Below, piece by piece: positions 14,534-54,783 of a stretch of 64,000 bases of DNA (position 1 is its first letter; the number at the start of each line of letters is the position of its first letter). The stretch lies in contig NZ_CP070950.1 in assembly GCF_017084525.1 (NCBI RefSeq), positions 1,798,001-1,862,000 of the forward strand. Direction: 5' to 3'. Under the pieces are notes generated by a model. It had not been told where the DNA came from and did no database searches. It saw only the letters and a program-made list of their open reading frames with translations. The DNA comes from Conexibacter sp. SYSU D00693 (GTDB taxonomy: Bacteria; Actinomycetota; Thermoleophilia; Solirubrobacterales; Solirubrobacteraceae). Position numbers and translations under genes: made by a program.

Positions 14534-17500
14534 ATGGGCCGCCCCAAGTCCTTCGACGCGCTGCGCAAGCTCCCCGTGGTGGGCCGCGCCGCGGACTGGG
14601 GCATGGGACCGGCGGCGGTCTCGGGGCGCACGAAGCGGGCCGGCTCGCGCATCGCGGGGCTCAAGGCGACCGAGTCGGTCTGCCCCTACTGCGCCGTGGG
14701 CTGCGGCCAGGTCGTCTACACCCGCGGCGGAGAGCTCGTCGACATCGAGGGCAACCCGCGCTCGCCCATCAACCAGGGGACGCTGTGCCCCAAGGGGTCG
14801 GCCTCGCGCCAGCTCGTCCAGCAGCCCGGGCGGATCACGAAGGTGCTCTACCGCGCGCCGCGCGCCACCGAGTGGCAGGAGCTCGAGCTCGAGACGGCGA
14901 TGGACATGATCGCCCAGCGGACGATCGCCGCCCGCGAGCGCGGCTGGCAGGACCACGACGACCAGGGCCGGCGCGTCGACCGCACGCTGGGCTTCGCGCA
15001 CCTCGGCGGCGCGACGCTCGACAACGAGGAGAACTACCTCATCAAGAAGGGCTTCACGGCGATGGGCGCCGTGCAGATCGAGAACCAGGCCCGCATATGA
15101 CACTCGAGCACGGTCCCCGGTCTGGGGACCTCGTTCGGGCGCGGCGGCGCCACCGACAACCAGCAGGCGCTGCAGAACGCGGACTGCATCCTCATCCAGG
15201 GCTCCTCGCTGGCCGAGGCGCATCCCGTCGGCTTCCGCTGGGCGATGAAGGCGCGCGAGCGCGGCGCCAAGCTCATCCACGTCGACCCGCGCTTCTCGCG
15301 CACGAGCGCGGTGTCGGACCTGCACGTCCCCATCCGGGCGGGCACGGACATCGCGTTCCTCGGCGGCCTCATCCGCCACGTGCTCGAGACCGAGTCGTAC
15401 TTCCGCGAGTACGTCCTGCGCTACACGAACGCGTCGACGATCATCGACGAGCGCTTCCGGGACACCGAGGACCTCGGCGGCGTCTTCTCGGGCTTCGACC
15501 CCGAGACGGGGATGTACGACCGCACGAGCTGGATGTACGAGGGCGGCGAGGTCGCCTCGGCGGCGGGCATGCGCGAGCACGCCAGCCAGGCCTTCGACGA
15601 GAACACGGGCGCCGGCCTGATGGAGGGCCGGGTGCAGCGCGACGAGACGCTCCAGCACCCGCGCTGCGTCTTCCAGCTGCTGCGCAAGCACTTCGGCCGC
15701 TACACGCCCGAGATGGTCCAGCAGGTGTGCGGCATCTCGCCCCAGCAGTTCCAGCAGGTGGCGGACACGCTGGTCGCCAACTCCGGTCGCGAGCGCACCA
15801 CGGCGCTCTGCTACGCCGTGGGCTGGACCCAGCACTCGCTCGGCGTCCAGATCATCCGCACCGCGTCGATCCTCCAGCTGCTGCTGGGCAACATCGGGCG
15901 CCCGGGCGGCGGCATCATGGCGATGCGCGGCCACGCGTCGATCCAGGGCTCGAGCGACATCCCGACGCTCTACGACCTGCTGCCGGGCTACCTGCACATG
16001 CCGCGCGCCCGCGAGGAGGAGCTGACGCTCGAGCAGTACATCTCCTCGGGCGGCGCCGACCGCGGGTGGTGGTCGCACTTCGACCGCTACATCGTCTCGC
16101 TGCTCAAGGCGTGGTTCGGCGACGCGGCGACGCCCGAGAACGACTTCGGCTTCGCCCACCTGCCGAAGATCAGCGGCAACCACGCGCACTACCCGACGAT
16201 GATGCGCGCCGTCGACGGCGGCCTGGACGGCCTGTTCGTCATGGGCCAGAACCCGGCGGTCGGCTCCCAGAACGCGGGGCTCATGCGCCGCGCGCTGCGC
16301 GGGATGAAGTGGCTGGTGGTGCGCGACCTGCGCGAGATCGAGACCGCGTCGTTCTGGAAGGACGCGCCGGAGGTCAAGGCCGGCGACGTGCGCCCGGAGG
16401 ACATCGAGACCGAGGTCTTCCTCATGCCGGCAGCGACCCACATCGAGAAGGAGGGCTCCTTCACGAACACCCAGCGGCTCGTGCAGTGGCGCGACAAGGC
16501 GCTCGAGGCGCCGGGCGACTGCCGCAGCGAGCTGTGGTTCATGCACCACCTGGTCAAGCGGGTGCGCGCGCACTACGCCGACTCGACCGCCGAGAAGGAC
16601 TGGGCGATCCGCCACGTGCGCTGGGACTACGAGGAGCACGGGGCCGAGCGCGAGCCGCTGCCCGAGGACGTCCTGCGCGAGATCAACGGCTACGACGTCG
16701 CGACGGGCACGCCGCTGCCAGGGTTCGCCCAGCTGGAGGCCGACGGCTCGACGGCCTGCGGCTGCTGGATCTACTCCGGCATCTACGCCGACGGGGTCAA
16801 CCACGCGCGCAAGCGCGACCCCGGCGACCTCGACGCCCCGGGTGGCTGGGTCTCGCCGCACTGGGCCTGGGCGTGGCCGGCCAACCGCCGGCTGCTCTAC
16901 AACCGCGCCTCCGCCGACCCCGACGGGCGGCCGTGGTCCGAGCGCAAGCGCTACGTCTGGTGGGACGAGGAGCAGGCCAAGTGGGTCGGCTACGACGTCC
17001 CGGACTTCCCCGTTGACAAGCGCCCGGACTACCGCGCCCCGGAGTCGGGGCCGCCCGCCCAGGGCATGGACGCGATCGGCGGCGACGAGCCGTTCATCAT
17101 GATGGGCGACGGCCGCGGCTGGCTGTACACGCCCAGCGGCCTGCTCGACGGGCCGATGCCGACCCACTACGAGCCCGTCGAGTCGCCGGTGCCCAACGCC
17201 CTGTACCCGGACGTCGGCGCGAACCCGGTGGCGATCCGCTGGCAGCGCCCGGACAACCCGATGAACGCGTCGGACGACCCGCGCTGGCCGTGCGTCCTGA
17301 CGACCTTCCGCCTCACCGAGCACCACACCGTCGGCGCCATGAGCCGCAACCTGCCGTGGCTGGCCGAGCTCCAGCCGGAGATGTTCGCGGAGATCGACCC
17401 GGTGCTGGCCGCCTCGCGCGGCATCGAGGACGGCGGCTGGCTCGTCGTGATGACCGAGCGCGGCGAGATCGAGGCGCGCGCGAAGGTCACCGACCGCATG

Positions 17501-17782
17501 CGCCCGCTGCAGGTCGGCGGCCGCCGCGTGCACCAGGTCGCGCTCCCATGGCACTGGGGCTACGGCGGCGACGCGCCCGGCGACAGCGCCAACGACGTCC
17601 TGCACCTGTCGGGCGACCCGAACACGAACATCGAGACGACCAAGGCGCTGACGTGCGACGTGCGCGCGGGCCGGCGGACCTCGGCGCGCACCTCGATCGT
17701 GCACCGGGCCGAGGCCGGGCACAGCGAGGTCGGCCACGACCACCCCGCCGAGCAGCCGAAGATCGGACCGAGCAAGGCATGA
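14534..17782 (+). CDS. fdnG: Formate dehydrogenase alpha subunit, selenocysteine-containing
   Basis: The gene encodes 1082 residues when the in-frame TGA at 15098-15100 is read as selenocysteine (residue 189). The flanks fit FdnG-type enzymes: MGAVQIENQARI before, and HSSTVPGLGTSFGRGGATDN then AEAHPVGFRWAMKARERGAK after. CPYCAVGC plus a later CPKG near residues 50-95 bind a 4Fe-4S cluster; the rest is the molybdopterin-dinucleotide oxidoreductase fold, ending with the molydopterin-binding domain. It oxidises formate to CO2 at Mo or W. No twin-arginine signal is visible at the N terminus, unlike E. coli FdnG. The stop overlaps the next ATG. Confidence 0.95.
15098..15100 (+). other. In-frame TGA read as selenocysteine
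   Basis: The codon follows ...NQARI and precedes HSSTVPGLG, exactly where FdnG/FdhF enzymes carry Sec or Cys. The same frame stays open and conserved on both sides, and tRNA-Sec, selA, selB and selD are encoded within 10 kb. Read as a stop, it would leave a 188-residue fragment. Confidence 0.95.
15101..15137 (+). promoter_or_regulatory. Bacterial SECIS element
   Basis: GGTCCCC (15112-15118), loop GGTCT (15119-15123) and GGGGACC (15124-15130) form a perfect 7-bp stem. The apical GGUCU loop is the one seen in E. coli fdhF-type SECIS elements, and it begins 19 nt after the TGA, the normal distance. SelB would bind this hairpin to deliver Sec-tRNA. The lower stem is imperfect. Confidence 0.93.
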
Positions 17783-18822
17783 GCCCCGTCGTCCCCGTCC
17801 CCCACGCGCCGCCGTCCGAGGTCTCCGTCCGCCGCGACGGCGCCCAGCGGATGGGCTTCTTCACCGACACGACGGTGTGCATCGGCTGCAAGGCGTGCGA
17901 GGTCGCCTGCAAGCAGTGGAACGACCTGCCCGCCGACGGGTCGGTCTTCCGCCGCGGCGGCTCGTACGACCACACGGGGTCGCTGGGCGCGGCGACGTGG
18001 CGCCACGTGCGCTTCGTCGAGGAGCTCGAGCCGGCCGACGCCGAGCTGCCCGACCTCGTGGCGATCGCCGAGGGCAAGGGGCTGGCGTCGGACTCGGTCG
18101 ACGTCGACGGCGAGGGCGCGCCGGTCGACGTCGCGGCCGCGGTCCGGGACATGAGCCGCTGGGTGTTCATGTCCGACGTCTGCAAGCACTGCACGAACGC
18201 GGGCTGCATGGACGCGTGCCCGACGGGCGCGCTCGTGCGCACGGAGTTCGAGACGGTGGTGCTCCAGGCCGACGTCTGCAACGGCTGCGGCTACTGCATC
18301 CCCTCCTGCCCGTTCGGCGTGGTGGACCGCGACCACGACGACGGGCGCGCCGCCAAGTGCACCCTCTGCTACGACCGCCTCCAGGACGGGCTCGAGCCGG
18401 CGTGCGCGAAGGCCTGCCCGACGGACTCGATCCAGTTCGGCCCCTACGACGAGCTCGTCGACGTCGCGCGACGGCGCGTCACCAAGCTCCACGAGAAGGG
18501 GCGCACGAGCGCCTACCTCTACGGCGCGGGCGACATGGAGGACGAGCAGCTGGCCGGCGGCCTGGGCGCGTTCTTCCTGCTCACCGAGCCGCCGGAGCGC
18601 TACGGGCTGCCCGCGCAGGCCGACTCGCCGATCCAGGAGAACGTCGTGCCGGCGACGCTCGCGGCCATGGGCGCCGGGCTCGCGGCGGCCGCCGGCGTGG
18701 CCGCGGCGTTCGTCCTGCCCCGCCGCCACGACACCTCGAAGGTCGTGGCCGGGCTGGCGCTCGCCTCGGGCGTGGCCGAGCTCGTGACGGACTGGCGGCG
18801 CTCGCGGAGGCGCGCGGCGTGA
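17779..18822 (+). CDS. fdnH: Formate dehydrogenase beta subunit, four 4Fe-4S clusters
   Basis: The 347-residue protein begins at ATG 17779, overlapping the alpha-subunit stop. It has four cysteine clusters of the FdnH/HybA type: CIGCKACEVACKQW, CKHCTNAGCMDACP, CNGCGYCIPSCPFG and CTLCYDRLQ...CAKACP. A C-terminal hydrophobic segment (VVPATLAAMGAGLAAAAGVAAAFVL) would anchor it to the membrane, as in FdnH. It carries electrons from the alpha subunit to the membrane subunit. The last residues are basic. The stop overlaps the GTG of the NrfD-like gene. Confidence 0.93.
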   Translation: MSPVVPVPHAPPSEVSVRRDGAQRMGFFTDTTVCIGCKACEVACKQWNDLPADGSVFRRGGSYDHTGSLGAATWRHVRFVEELEPADAELPDLVAIAEGKGLASDSVDVDGEGAPVDVAAAVRDMSRWVFMSDVCKHCTNAGCMDACPTGALVRTEFETVVLQADVCNGCGYCIPSCPFGVVDRDHDDGRAAKCTLCYDRLQDGLEPACAKACPTDSIQFGPYDELVDVARRRVTKLHEKGRTSAYLYGAGDMEDEQLAGGLGAFFLLTEPPERYGLPAQADSPIQENVVPATLAAMGAGLAAAAGVAAAFVLPRRHDTSKVVAGLALASGVAELVTDWRRSRRRAA

Positions 18823-20039
18823 GCGGCCACGAGGACCGTCACGCCGGGCGGCGGATGGCGCGCTCGCGCCGGGCCGCCAAGGCGCGCGCGGACGCGGCGC
18901 ACGAGGTGCGCGACATGACGCCCGCCGTCGGCAAGGCGGGCGAGCCGGCGTCGTGGGAGCGCGCGCAGGAGGGCGCGCCCGTCGCGCTGCACATCGGCCA
19001 GTGGGAGGACGGGCGCTGGTCCTACCTCTTCGGCGAGGACACGCAGTACGCCGCGGCCGAGGCCGACGAGGAGGCGATCGTCGCGGCGTCCCGGGCGGCG
19101 CGCGAGGGCCCGCCGCCCGCGCTCGTCCAGGGCCCGATGATGAAGGCGCCGGTGTGGACGTGGGAGGTCCCGGTCTACTTCTGGTTCGGCGGGATGGCGG
19201 CGGGCGCGTCGTTCGTCGCGCTGGCCTGCGACCTCGCGGGCGACGAGCGCTCGGCGCGGATCGCGCGGCGCGTCGCGGTGGCGGCGCTCGGCCCGTCCCC
19301 GCCGCTGCTCGTCATGGACCTCGGGCGCCCCGAGCGCTTCTACAACATGCTGCGGATCTTCAAGGTCCGCTCGCCGATGTCCATGGGCGCCTGGGCGCTC
19401 AGCGCGTTCGGCGGCCTGGCCACGGCCGCGGCGGGCGCGGACCTGCTGGGGCGCCGGCGAACCGCGAAGGCCCTCGGCGCGGCCAACGCGGTCGTGGGCG
19501 GCTACCTGGGCTCGTACACCGGCGTCCTGCTCGCCTCGACGGCGGTGCCGGTGTGGGCGCGCTCCCGGCTGTTCCTCGGGCCGATCTTCGTGGCGACGGC
19601 GACGCTCACCGGCGCATCGACGACGCGACTCGTGCTCGTGGCGAGCGGGCTCGAGGAGGGCCACCCGACGCGCGAGGCGCTCGGGCGGGTCGAGAGCGGC
19701 GCGATGGTCGCCGAGCTCCTGCTCTCCGAGGTCAACGAGCGCCGGCTCGGGCGGTTGGCCTCCGTGCTCGAGGAGGGCGAGGGCGCGCGGTGGTTCAAGC
19801 GCGCGAAGTGGCTGGCGCGCGCCGGCATGGGGCTGCGCTTCGCCCGGCGGCGCGGCGGCCCCTGGACGCACCACGTGGCGAGCTGCTGCTACCTGGCGGC
19901 GGCGCTGTGCTTCCGCTTCGCGTGGGTGCGCTCGGGACCGTCGTCGGCGGGCGACGACGAGGCGGTCGCCCGGATGGCGCGGGCTCACGCGACCGCCGGC
20001 GAACCGGACGCCGACGTCCGCGTGGTGCACCACCGCTGA
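18819..20039 (+). CDS. nrfD: NrfD/PsrC-type membrane subunit of formate dehydrogenase
   Basis: GTG 18819 overlaps the beta-subunit stop, giving 406 residues. After a ~110-residue soluble N-terminal part (HIGQWEDGRWSYLFGEDTQYAA) there are about seven or eight membrane helices, including VYFWFGGMAAGASFVALACD, MGAWALSAFGGLATAAAGAD and GGYLGSYTGVLLASTAVPVW. The sequence fits NrfD, the quinone-facing subunit of many complex iron-sulfur molybdoenzymes, and not the di-haem cytochrome b FdnI. The enzyme should therefore reduce quinone without haem. The long charged N-terminal extension is unusual and unexplained. Confidence 0.88.
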   Translation: MSGHEDRHAGRRMARSRRAAKARADAAHEVRDMTPAVGKAGEPASWERAQEGAPVALHIGQWEDGRWSYLFGEDTQYAAAEADEEAIVAASRAAREGPPPALVQGPMMKAPVWTWEVPVYFWFGGMAAGASFVALACDLAGDERSARIARRVAVAALGPSPPLLVMDLGRPERFYNMLRIFKVRSPMSMGAWALSAFGGLATAAAGADLLGRRRTAKALGAANAVVGGYLGSYTGVLLASTAVPVWARSRLFLGPIFVATATLTGASTTRLVLVASGLEEGHPTREALGRVESGAMVAELLLSEVNERRLGRLASVLEEGEGARWFKRAKWLARAGMGLRFARRRGGPWTHHVASCCYLAAALCFRFAWVRSGPSSAGDDEAVARMARAHATAGEPDADVRVVHHR

Positions 20040-20058: not shown

Positions 20059-20946
20059 ATGTCCTTCAAGAGCCCCCCGGAGGTCGCGAAGGCCGGCGTG
20101 CAGGTGGGCGCCCAGAAGGCCGGGCTGTCCTGGGACAAGGCGGTCGTCGCCGGCTTCCTCGCCGGGGCGTACATCGCCTTCGCCGGCATGCTCGCCGTCG
20201 TCACCTCGGCGGGGATGGACCCGCAGGTCTGGGGCGGCGTCCAGACGCTCGTCACGGGCGGCGTCTTCACCCTGGGCCTCGTGTTGGTGGTGGTCGCGGG
20301 CTCCGAGCTGCTCACGGGCAACATGGCGCTCGTGCCGCTGGCCGCGCTGGGCCGGCGGGTGCGGCTCTCCCAGCTCGTGCACAACCTGAGCTTCGTGCTC
20401 ATCGGCAACCTCCTGGGCTCGCTGTTCGTCGCGTACTTCCTCGCCAAGGAGACGGGCGTCATCACCGCGCAGGCGCCGCTCGAGCGCCTCGGGGAGATCG
20501 CCACCGCCAAGGGCCTGACCGAGAGCGACTGGCAGATCTTCCTGCGCGCGGTCGGCTGCAACTGGCTCGTCTGCCTCGCCGTCTGGATGGCGCTGTCGGC
20601 CGAGGACGTGGCCGGCAAGGTCCTGGCCATCTTCTTCCCGATCATGGCCTTCGTCGCCATGGGCTTCGACCACGTCGTGGCGAACATGTTCTTCCTGCCG
20701 GCGGCGATCTTCGCCGACGTGCCGGGCGTCGACTGGGGCCACGCGCTGGAGAACTGGGCCTTCGCCTTCCTGGGCAACTTCGTCGGCGCGGGCGTCTTCG
20801 TCGCGACGAGCTACTGGTACCTCTACGTCAAGCCCGAGCAGGGCGAGGCGAGCGGCGGCGGGACGCGGGCCGAGGGCGACGGGCACGGCGACGGCCGCGT
20901 CGCGCGCGACGAGCGCACGACGGCGAGCTCGAGCGCTACCGCGTAG
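20059..20946 (+). CDS. focA: Formate/nitrite transporter family channel
   Basis: The 295-residue protein has the FNT fold: [22 protein letters not shown] (TM1), [15 protein letters not shown] (the omega-loop signature after TM2b), [27 protein letters not shown] and a second half with [14 protein letters not shown] containing the conserved His. It would import formate for the dehydrogenase encoded 19 bp upstream, although nitrite or hydrosulfide transport is possible from family alone. The C-terminal tail is Glu/Gly/Asp rich. Its 3' end overlaps the convergent selA by 11 bp. Confidence 0.9.
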
Positions 20947-22296
20947 TCGCCCGGGAGACGGCGCCGGCGGCGAGGTCCACCTCGTCGTCGGCGAGGGTCC
21001 GCGGGTCGACGAGCACGCGGGCGTCCTGGATGCGCGCGAGCAGCGGCGGGTCGCCCGCGCGCAGGGCGGCCGCCAGGGCGCCGGGCCCGTCGGGGTGCTC
21101 GAGCACGACGGCGGGGCCGGGCAGCTCGAGCAGCGGCAGCGCACCGCCGCCGACCTTCGCGACGGCCTCGACCACCGCGCCGCCGGTGGCGGTGGCCAGG
21201 CGCTGCGCGCGGTCGCGCAGCGTGGCGTCGTCGACGGTGAGCATCGCCAGGACGGGGACCTCGCGGCGGGCGAGCTCGGGGTCGCGGTGCAGCGCCAGCG
21301 TGGCGGCCAGCGCGGCGAGCGGCAGGCGGCCCACGCGCAGGGCGCGAGCCAGCGGGTGGCGGCGGCAGGCGCTGATGGCCTCGGCGGTCCCCACGAGGAT
21401 CCCGGCCTGCGGGCCGCCGAGGAGCTTGTCGGCGCTGAAGGTCGTCAGGGCGGCGCCGGCGGCGACCGAGTCGCGGGCGGTGGGCTCGTCGCGCAGGACG
21501 TCGAGACCCCGCCGCAGGACGCCCGAGCCCAGGTCGTCGACGACCGGCACGCCGAGCGTGCACAGCGCCGCGACGTCGACGTCCTCGACGAAGCCCAGCG
21601 TGCGGAAGTTCGAGGGGTGCACGCGCAGGACGACGTCGGCGCCGTCGTCGACCGCGGCGCGGAAGTCGGCCAGCCGGGTGCGGTTGGTCGTGCCCACCTC
21701 GACCAGCCGGGCGCCGGCCTGGCGCACGACGTCCGGGATGCGGAAGCCGCCGCCGATCTCGACGAGCTGCCCCCGCGAGACGGCGATCGACCGGCCGGGT
21801 CCGCCGAGCGCCGCGGCGGCCAGCAGGACGGCGGCGGCGCCGTTGTTCACGACGAGCGCGTCCTGCGCGCCGGTGAGCTCGGCCAGCAGCGGCGCCACGT
21901 GCGCGTCGCGCGCGCCGCGCCGGCCGGCGCCGAGGTCGAGCTCGAGGTCGACGTAGCCGCGAGCGGCCTCCGCGGCCGCCCGCGCGGCGACCTCCGCCAG
22001 CGGCGCCCGGCCGAGGTTCGTGTGGACGACGACGCCCGTGCCGTTGAGCACCCGGCGCGGCGCGGGCCGCAGGCGCTCGCGCACACGGGCGACGAGGTCG
22101 GGCTCGTCCTGCGCGCCGTCCAGCAGCTCCGCCCGCCGCGCCTCCAGCACCGCCCGCGCCGCGGCGACCGCCTGGGCCGCCGTCACGGCAGGCGTCGGAC
22201 GCCCGTCGGGGCGGCCGGTGTCAGACACCTGCTGTGCGAGGGCGTCGACGGCGGGCAGCGAGCGCAGGCGGGCGCGGAGCTCGTCGGGCGGCGCGC

Positions 22297-22300
<4 letters not shown>
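20936..22300 (-). CDS. selA: L-seryl-tRNA(Sec) selenium transferase SelA
   Basis: The 454-residue PLP enzyme converts Ser-tRNA(Sec) to Sec-tRNA(Sec) using selenophosphate. Seen are [18 protein letters not shown] (residues ~90-107), the PLP lysine in [15 protein letters not shown], and [15 protein letters not shown]. Length and order match bacterial SelA. The ATG overlaps the selB stop by 4 bp, so the two are coupled. Residues 25-29 (VSDTG) are encoded by a perfect 13-bp palindrome of a type that recurs in this locus. Confidence 0.96.
22217..22229. repeat. 13-bp palindrome inside selA
   Basis: GGTGTC-A-GACACC is a perfect inverted repeat around a single central A, within the selA N-terminal coding region. 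It shares the GGNGYC-N-GRCNCC pattern with palindromes in selB and in the gene at 42992. Confidence 0.6.
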
Positions 22301-23814
<1,514 letters not shown>

Positions 23815-23821
23815 GGCGCAG

Positions 23822-23913
23822 CGGAGCGGCGAAGGAGTCGAACCTCCCCGGCGCGGTCGACGCGCCGCCAACGGCTTTGAAGGCCGTTCGGGGCACCGGC
23901 CCCGGGCCGCTCC
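23822..23913 (-). tRNA. selC: tRNA-Sec (UCA anticodon)
   Basis: The 92-nt gene folds with an 8-bp acceptor stem (GGAGCGGC pairing with GCCGCTCC), a 5-bp T stem with loop TTCGACT, a long variable arm (GGCGCG pairing with CGCGCC) and anticodon loop CTTCAAA giving UCA. The 8+5 arrangement and G discriminator are typical of bacterial tRNA-Sec. CCA is not encoded. It lies 16 bp behind selD and only 7 bp before the selB start codon, so it is probably released from a common transcript. Confidence 0.95.
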
Positions 23914-23929
23914 ACGGCGAGGCGGGGCC

Positions 23930-24952
23930 TCACCGGACGCGGATGGTGCCAGGCGCGCCCTCGACGAGCCGCCCGACGACGGTGCCCGGGAGCGTCGCGG
24001 CGACGTCTGGCGCCGCGGCGGCGAGCAGGCCGCCCGAGGTCGTGGCGTCGCACACCAGCCTGGCCCGCCAGGGCGCGACGGCGTCGTCGATCGCCGCGAA
24101 CGTCGCCGCCCACTCGGCGTTGCGCGCGCTGCCGCCCGAGACGGCGGACGCGTCGGCCAGGAGCGCCTCGACGCCGTCGATCGCCGGCACGGCGTCCGCA
24201 TCGACCTCCGCCGCGACGCCCGACTCGCGTGCGAGGTTGTGCACGTGGCCGAGCAGGCCGAAGCCGGTCACGTCGGTCATCGCCCGCACGCCGGCACCCA
24301 CCGCGGCCTCGGCCGCCGCCGCGTTGAGCTGCACCATGACGTCGACCGCCGCCTGCAGCAGCGCGTCGTCGGCGGCGCCGCGCTTGCGCGCCGTCACGAT
24401 CGCGCCGACGCCCAGCGGCTTGGTCAGCACGAGCACGTCGCCCGGGCGCCCCGCCGCGTTCGTCGTCATCCGCTCGGGGTCGACGATCCCGGTCACGGCC
24501 AGGCCGTACTTCGGCTCGGCGTCCTTGATCGAGTGGCCGCCGACGACCGACGCGCCCGCGGCCGCCACGACGTCGAGCCCGCCGCGCAGCACGTCGCGCA
24601 GGACGTCGGGACCGAGCTGCTCGAGCGGGAAGGCGACGACGTTGAGCGCCGTCACCGGCGTGCCGCCCATCGCGTAGACGTCGGAGAGCGCGTTGGCCGC
24701 CGCGATGCGCCCGAAGTCGTAGGGGTCGTCGACCACCGGCGTGAAGAAGTCGATCGTCTGCACGAGCGCGAGGTCGTCGCGCAGCCGGAAGACCGCCGCG
24801 TCGTCGCCCGTCGGGGTGCCGACCAGCAGCCGCTCGTCGGTCGCCTGCGGCAGGCCCAGCACGACCGGCAGCACGTCCTGCGCGGCGAGCTTGCAGCCGC
24901 ACCCCGCTCCGCTGGCCAGCGACGTGAGCGGCACGGCGGGCGTGGTGGCCAT
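23930..24952 (-). CDS. selD: Selenide, water dikinase SelD
   Basis: The 340-residue protein makes selenophosphate from selenide and ATP, the selenium donor for SelA. SGAGCGCKL (C18, K21 when started at ATG 24952) is the active-site motif, in the cysteine form. GDDAAVF, DPYDFGRIAAANALSDVYAMGG and VVGGHSIKDAEPKYGLAVTG are conserved AIRS-fold segments. I chose ATG 24952 over an upstream GTG because a TAGCCT -10 hexamer lies 7 nt before it. It heads the selD-selC-selB-selA cluster. Confidence 0.96.
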   Translation of the reverse strand: MATTPAVPLTSLASGAGCGCKLAAQDVLPVVLGLPQATDERLLVGTPTGDDAAVFRLRDDLALVQTIDFFTPVVDDPYDFGRIAAANALSDVYAMGGTPVTALNVVAFPLEQLGPDVLRDVLRGGLDVVAAAGASVVGGHSIKDAEPKYGLAVTGIVDPERMTTNAAGRPGDVLVLTKPLGVGAIVTARKRGAADDALLQAAVDVMVQLNAAAAEAAVGAGVRAMTDVTGFGLLGHVHNLARESGVAAEVDADAVPAIDGVEALLADASAVSGGSARNAEWAATFAAIDDAVAPWRARLVCDATTSGGLLAAAAPDVAATLPGTVVGRLVEGAPGTIRVR

Positions 24953-24959
24953 GCGCCGC

Positions 24960-24965
24960 AGGCTA
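24960..24965 (-). promoter_or_regulatory. Candidate -10 element (TAGCCT) for selD
   Basis: On the minus strand TAGCCT ends 7 nt before the selD ATG, consistent with a leaderless transcript that would also cover tRNA-Sec, selB and selA. Confidence 0.4.
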
Positions 24966-25014
24966 CCCAGCGCCTTCACGCTTGCCCGCCGCGCAGGTGG
25001 GCAGGATGGCGCCC

Positions 25015-54584: not shown

Positions 54585-54594
54585 GCGTGAACCC

Positions 54595-54735
54595 CTCTCT
54601 TCGGTGCCTGCGGGGTTAGCTGTCGGGCTCGCGCCAAGAGAGCGGCGCTACACGGCTTCTGCGTGATTCGCCCCGGACCGGGTACGTCCCGGTCAGTGGG
54701 TCCCCCGCCCGCCGCCCTGAGGACGGGTGGCGGTT
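54595..54735 (-). promoter_or_regulatory. Cyclic-di-AMP riboswitch (ydaO/yuaA class)
   Basis: On the minus strand the leader carries GGGGGACCCA (54697-54706 region), GGGGCGAATC (54665-54674) and GAGCCCGACAGCTAACCCCG with GCAGGC after it (54606-54630), the three conserved segments of the ydaO class in the same order as B. subtilis ydaO. It lies just before the Shine-Dalgarno of the cell-wall hydrolase, the class usually controlled by this riboswitch in actinobacteria. The outer stem boundaries are approximate. Confidence 0.9.
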
Positions 54736-54783
54736 CGGCTGGTCTTCAAGACTGCGCGCGGCAGCGTAGCAACCGCGACGGTC

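What the first reader, a model, noticed from the sequence alone, without database searches (positions are those of the whole stretch)
14534..17782. Selenocysteine formate dehydrogenase with a textbook SECIS in a Thermoleophilia-like genome
An in-frame TGA at 15098-15100 sits where FdnG-type enzymes carry Sec. It is followed at 19 nt by a perfect 7-bp hairpin with loop GGTCT. Automatic annotation would split this gene into a 188-residue fragment and a downstream 'truncated' protein.
Basis: partly seen in the sequence, partly recalled or inferred. Interest (0 to 1): 0.75.

Follow-up and report, generated by a model that had tools for sequence, protein, structure and literature searches.

The report
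Ordinary selenocysteine formate dehydrogenase
The in-frame stop codon is real and is almost certainly read as selenocysteine in a formate-oxidising enzyme, because the whole selenocysteine machinery lies a few kilobases away and the RNA signal is preserved in about ninety distinct relatives; it is a well-supported but ordinary member of an enzyme family already known in actinobacteria.

Summary
Confirmed and ordinary. The ORF 14534-17782 has one in-frame TGA (15098-15100) at the Sec position of formate dehydrogenases, followed by a stable hairpin. In 91 distinct Sec-type relatives the 7-bp apical hairpin is paired in 94.5% of cells, with compensatory changes at four pairs. The loop keeps a T-ending codon in 91/91, although T-ending Gly codons are rare in this operon. 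Ten Cys homologues have lost the hairpin and descend from a single Sec-to-Cys change. Sec machinery is detected in 76 of 80 genomes with the TGA form and 1 of 7 Cys-only genomes. A similar cluster with Se-dependent formate oxidation is published for Actinomycetospora (PMC7176365). New member of a known kind.

The parts
14534..17782 (+). fdhA: formate dehydrogenase alpha subunit, 1082 residues, Sec189
   Evidence: Translation with TGA=U; NCBIfam NF041513 1666 bits (cut-off 1400) and TIGR01553 973 bits; PDB 1h0h, 8cm4, 1kqf by phmmer
15098..15100 (+). In-frame TGA read as selenocysteine (Sec189), followed by His190
   Evidence: Aligns with the Sec position of 1h0h (X in the PDB sequence); TGA in every Sec homologue sequence, TGC/TGT in Cys homologues
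15112..15130 (+). SECIS apical hairpin, 7 bp, GGUCCCC/GGGGACC
   Evidence: RNAfold; covariation over 91 sequences: 94.5% of cells paired, 4 of 7 pairs with changes on both sides
15119..15123 (+). SECIS loop GGUCU; the third and fifth loop bases are invariant
   Evidence: Alignment A1: T24 and T26 invariant, G23 nearly so; codon 196 ends in T in 91/91 Sec sequences, 1/10 Cys
17779..18822 (+). fdhB: 4Fe-4S subunit with one C-terminal hydrophobic helix, start overlaps fdhA stop (ATGA)
   Evidence: PF13247 and other Fer4 models; hydropathy
18852..20039 (+). NrfD/PsrC-type membrane subunit (start codon uncertain)
   Evidence: PF03916, 75.9 bits
20059..20946 (+). Formate/nitrite transporter family channel
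   Evidence: PF01226, 254 bits; TIGR00790 219.7 bits, just below its 232 cut-off
20936..22300 (-). selA: L-seryl-tRNA(Sec) selenium transferase
   Evidence: TIGR00474, 440 bits (cut-off 268)
22297..23814 (-). selB: Sec-specific elongation factor (proposed GTG start, 8 nt after the tRNA-Sec 3' end)
   Evidence: TIGR00475, 318 bits (cut-off 242); C-terminal SelB-wing_3 PF09107; start context
23823..23913 (-). tRNA-Sec (selC), anticodon UCA
   Evidence: Rfam RF01852 69.1 bits (gathering 47); ARAGORN
23930..24979 (-). selD: selenide, water dikinase (Cys form)
   Evidence: TIGR00476, 380 bits (cut-off 125)

Best explanation
This is a selenocysteine-containing, Mo/W-bis-pterin formate dehydrogenase. 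During translation the UGA at 15098 is decoded by SelB carrying Sec-tRNA-Sec; SelB is recruited by the mRNA hairpin whose loop starts 18 nt downstream. Ser-tRNA-Sec is converted to Sec-tRNA-Sec by SelA using selenophosphate from SelD, all encoded next door. Sec189 is expected to ligate the metal, with His190 and Arg465 in the active site; one [4Fe-4S] cluster (Cys50, 53, 57, 85) passes electrons to the Fe-S subunit and then to the NrfD-type membrane subunit and the quinone pool. Because no Tat signal is present, the catalytic subunit most likely faces the cytoplasm, and the formate/nitrite-family channel encoded next to it would bring formate in. Shown here: the ORF, the TGA, the SECIS hairpin and its covariation, the sel genes, and the family assignments. 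Inferred: actual Sec insertion, metal, direction of catalysis, topology and quinone coupling.
For: Single in-frame TGA at the Sec position. Hairpin with compensatory variation: pair 18/30 occurs as CG 49, GC 24, UA 6, UG 4, AU 2, other 6; pair 21/27 as CG 84, GC 3, UG 1, other 3. Loop codon 196 ends in T in 91/91 Sec homologue sequences although GGT is 3 of 183 Gly codons in the FDH operon genes. Cys homologues lose the hairpin (mean apical MFE -5.2 against -13.1 kcal/mol) and the Pro codon that forms it. Complete selA, selB, tRNA-Sec, selD within 10 kb. Sec machinery (selB, selA or tRNA-Sec) detected in 76 of 80 TGA-form genomes against 1 of 7 Cys-only genomes, Fisher p = 3e-6. The Cys forms are one clade nested inside Sec forms. 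A similar cluster in Actinomycetospora shows Se-dependent formate oxidation, with the proteins detected by proteomics (PMC7176365).
Against: No direct evidence of Se in this protein. A few draft relatives with the TGA gene lack detectable sel genes (G071, G324, G091, G293; G293 was not in the selA search), most simply missing contigs. The lower stem predicted by RNAfold is not conserved. The co-occurrence counts are not corrected for relatedness, and the Cys sample is one clade.
Confidence: 0.96

Rival explanations
1. The TGA is a true stop (pseudogene, sequencing error or two-part gene) and the downstream part is a decayed or separate protein.
For: A plain ORF caller sees 188 + 845 aa.
Against: The same TGA is present in relatives from several phyla, with the downstream frame intact at 55-82% identity; SECIS covariation; sel genes adjacent.
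Confidence: 0.01
2. UGA is read through with Cys or Trp (near-cognate suppression) rather than Sec.
For: Little: Cys is the residue in one clade of homologues.
Against: Complete Sec machinery, tRNA-Sec with anticodon UCA, and a conserved SECIS; Cys forms lose the SECIS.
Confidence: 0.02
3. It is a periplasmic FDH-N respiratory enzyme exactly like E. coli FdnGHI.
For: TIGR01553 above cut-off; 1kqf found by phmmer at 2e-209; the Fe-S subunit has one C-terminal hydrophobic helix.
Against: No twin-arginine motif in this protein or in 16 homologues; the membrane subunit matches NrfD (PF03916), and no cytochrome b family was listed for it; a formate channel adjoins.
Confidence: 0.06

Closest known systems
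Actinomycetospora chiangmaiensis FDH1 cluster (PMC7176365)
   Same: Sec-containing FdhA of 1078 aa, FdhB, a membrane gamma subunit, a permease, SelA and SelB listed in one cluster; formate removal depends on selenite; a SECIS was found with bSECISearch.
   Different: Different class (Actinomycetes); SelD is not listed in that cluster; in our tree two other Actinomycetospora FdhA (L045, L055) fall in a separate clade from the window's FdhA. The A. chiangmaiensis sequence itself was not compared here.
NCBIfam NF041513 formate_DH_Act
   Same: Best family hit of the full protein, 1666 bits against a cut-off of 1400, over residues 21-1055.
   Different: Nothing noted.
Desulfovibrio FdhAB (1h0h, 8cm4) and E. 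coli FdnG (1kqf)
   Same: Near full-length homology, 701-738 bits; Sec, His and active-site Arg aligned with 1h0h.
   Different: Those enzymes are exported (own knowledge); here no Tat signal was found and the anchor is NrfD-type.
fdoGHI-selABCD cluster of Proteobacteria (cited in PMC8124441); actinobacterial Sec-trait transfer (PMC5029168)
   Same: fdh genes physically linked to sel genes.
   Different: Here the sel genes run convergent to the fdh genes and are separated from them by an FNT-family gene.

Membership tests
Sec-containing formate dehydrogenase alpha subunit (NF041513 / TIGR01553) | Full-length family score above curated cut-off | tested here: met
   1666.1 vs 1400; 973.2 vs 814.2
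Sec-containing formate dehydrogenase alpha subunit (NF041513 / TIGR01553) | TGA codon at the metal-ligand position, followed by His | tested here: met
   Codon 189 TGA, ARI-U-H; aligned to X in 1h0h
Sec-containing formate dehydrogenase alpha subunit (NF041513 / TIGR01553) | [4Fe-4S] Cys motif and active-site Arg | tested here: met
   Cys50, 53, 57, 85; PF04879 60.6 bits; Arg465 in MRGHASIQG, aligned with LRGEANVQG of 1h0h
Sec-containing formate dehydrogenase alpha subunit (NF041513 / TIGR01553) | Se present in the protein | not testable with these tools
   Needs 75Se labelling or mass spectrometry
Bacterial SECIS element | Hairpin just 3' of UGA inside the coding sequence, with conserved loop G and U | tested here: met
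   Loop starts 18 nt after UGA; T24 invariant, G23 nearly invariant; covariation. Comparison with the E. coli fdhF spacing and its G23/U24 is from own knowledge
Bacterial SECIS element | Bulged U17 as in E. coli fdhF (own knowledge) | tested here: not met
   U17 is invariant but predicted paired with A31 (72 of 91 sequences) or G31 (15 of 91); it lies in a conserved Val codon, so its invariance says little. Not all bacterial SECIS elements are known to need the bulge (own knowledge), so this is a difference from E. coli, not a bar to membership
Sec-decoding trait (selA, selB, selC, selD) | All four genes present | tested here: met
E. coli FDH-N complex (FdnGHI) | Twin-arginine signal on the alpha subunit | tested here: not met
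   No RR motif in the N-terminus of this protein or of 16 homologues by pattern
E. coli FDH-N complex (FdnGHI) | Cytochrome b556 gamma subunit (FdnI) | tested here: not met
   The membrane subunit matches NrfD PF03916 only

The most novel reading that the evidence does not exclude
tRNA-Sec sits between selD and selB on one strand, 16 nt after the selD stop and 8 nt before the likely selB GTG start. If the three are co-transcribed, cutting out the tRNA would leave an almost leaderless selB mRNA, making tRNA-Sec maturation a control on SelB dosage. This would be an actinobacterial counterpart of Mukai's proposal for tRNA-Sec nested in selB (PMC8124441).
Probability: 0.12. Interest if true: 0.45.

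Novelty: new member of a known kind. Interest (0 to 1): 0.17.

Why it matters
It adds a well-supported Sec enzyme to Solirubrobacteraceae and shows how widespread the Sec-type formate dehydrogenase is in class Thermoleophilia (91 of 399 genomes carry this gene family, most of them as the TGA form). The searches made of the paper library found no paper describing selenocysteine use in this class. It also gives a clean natural control: when Sec becomes Cys, the synonymous and even the amino-acid constraints imposed by the SECIS vanish.

Tried and rejected
Chance hairpin: rejected by the synonymous-codon null and by covariation. Lower stem as part of the SECIS: rejected, 36% of cells paired. A second in-frame Sec codon in relatives reported with two TGAs: in L012, L079, L097, L107 and L108 only the codon-189 TGA lies inside the aligned region, so the second is probably the terminator. 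Further SECIS elements of the same type in the genome: the trained model finds only this one (E 5e-10; next E 1.7); selenoproteins with a different SECIS are not excluded.

Full report
What is there. The frame 14534-17782 encodes 1082 residues with one internal TGA at codon 189. The protein is a formate dehydrogenase alpha subunit: NCBIfam NF041513 (formate_DH_Act) 1666 bits, TIGR01553 973 bits, both above cut-off. Its best PDB relatives are the Sec-containing Desulfovibrio enzymes and E. coli FdnG. The TGA aligns with the Sec of 1h0h, next to the conserved His. The gene is followed by an Fe-S subunit, an NrfD-type membrane subunit and a formate/nitrite-family channel. On the opposite strand, convergent, lie selA, selB, tRNA-Sec and selD. 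The genome is a single 4.43-Mb contig with one copy of this gene. Contigs shared between unnamed relatives and named records place it with Solirubrobacteraceae: a contig of the same-family genome G324 has the length and match coordinates of a record named Solirubrobacteraceae.

Is the SECIS real? RNAfold gives z = -3.2. To separate RNA selection from protein selection I collected relatives. Codon 189 is TGA in 91 distinct 43-nt sequences and Cys in 10. Over the 91, the 7-bp apical helix is paired in 94.5% of cells; pair 18/30, which joins two third-codon positions, occurs as CG, GC, UA, UG and AU. Sliding the partner by 1 to 3 columns cuts the covariation score from 0.137 to at most 0.043. The loop codon 196 ends in T in all 91, although GGT is 3 of 183 Gly codons in the FDH operon genes, and in only 1 of 10 Cys sequences. 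Under random synonymous coding the stem plus loop appears in 0.15% of draws. The RNAfold lower stem is not conserved.

Sec versus Cys. In one search, 91 of 399 genomes of the class carry the gene, most with a TGA. In my tabulation, at least one of selB, selA or tRNA-Sec was detected in 76 of 80 TGA genomes and in 1 of 7 Cys-only genomes (Fisher p = 3e-6, not corrected for relatedness). For selB alone the figures are 64 of 80 and 1 of 7. These are counts made by eye from the listed E-values; the selA search covered only the genomes in doubt, and G293 and G319 were not among them. The Cys forms are one clade (SH-aLRT 99) nested within Sec forms, so one Sec-to-Cys change explains them; the proline that builds the stem is replaced by Val, Ala or Ile in all ten. 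The window's gene belongs to a 27-row clade made up of Solirubrobacterales sequences plus one record named only Actinobacteria.

The hairpin starts 11 nt after the TGA and its loop starts 18 nt after it. RefSeq annotates three homologues with the same TGA as one CDS, so present automatic annotation does not necessarily split the gene. The enzyme has no twin-arginine motif and an NrfD anchor, so it is FdnG-like in its catalytic subunit only.

What is known. Zhang 2006 lists FdhA as the selenoprotein family with the most members, with seven Sec-to-Cys events (PMC1794560). Peng 2016 reports Sec-trait transfer between actinobacteria (PMC5029168). In Actinomycetospora chiangmaiensis a cluster with FdhA, FdhB, FdhC, a permease, SelA and SelB was seen by proteomics (all but the permease detected), and formate removal needed selenite (PMC7176365). 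Searches of the paper library combining selenocysteine with Thermoleophilia or Solirubrobacterales gave nothing relevant. The finding is therefore a solid new member of a known kind, of low surprise.

Limits. No experiment shows Se here. Topology, metal and electron acceptor are inferred. E. coli SECIS details (U17, G23, U24) are from own knowledge. The selB start codon is a proposal from sequence context.

Noticed in passing
23815-23822 (-) and 23914-23929 (-): tRNA-Sec lies 16 nt after the selD stop and 8 nt before the likely selB GTG. In several relatives tRNA-Sec also follows selD closely on the same strand (L147, L148, L149) or precedes selB by about 25 nt (L145).
   Followed up: partly
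L143 (G071): A 97%-complete draft with a TGA formate dehydrogenase and intact SECIS but no selA, selB or tRNA-Sec detected; probably a missing contig, but not proven.
   Followed up: partly
L148 and L099 (G318): A genome with complete sel genes whose only detected copy of this formate dehydrogenase is the Cys form; its selenoprotein was not found.
   Followed up: no
L145, near 9808 (G298 selA): selA matches in two overlapping pieces (query 2-376 and 371-450), suggesting a frameshift or an assembly error.
   Followed up: no
54590-54750 (-): c-di-AMP riboswitch (Rfam RF00379, 75 bits).
   Followed up: no
class Thermoleophilia: 180 of 399 genomes score over the selB cut-off but only 91 carry this formate dehydrogenase family, so other selenoproteins are probably common in the class.
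   Followed up: no
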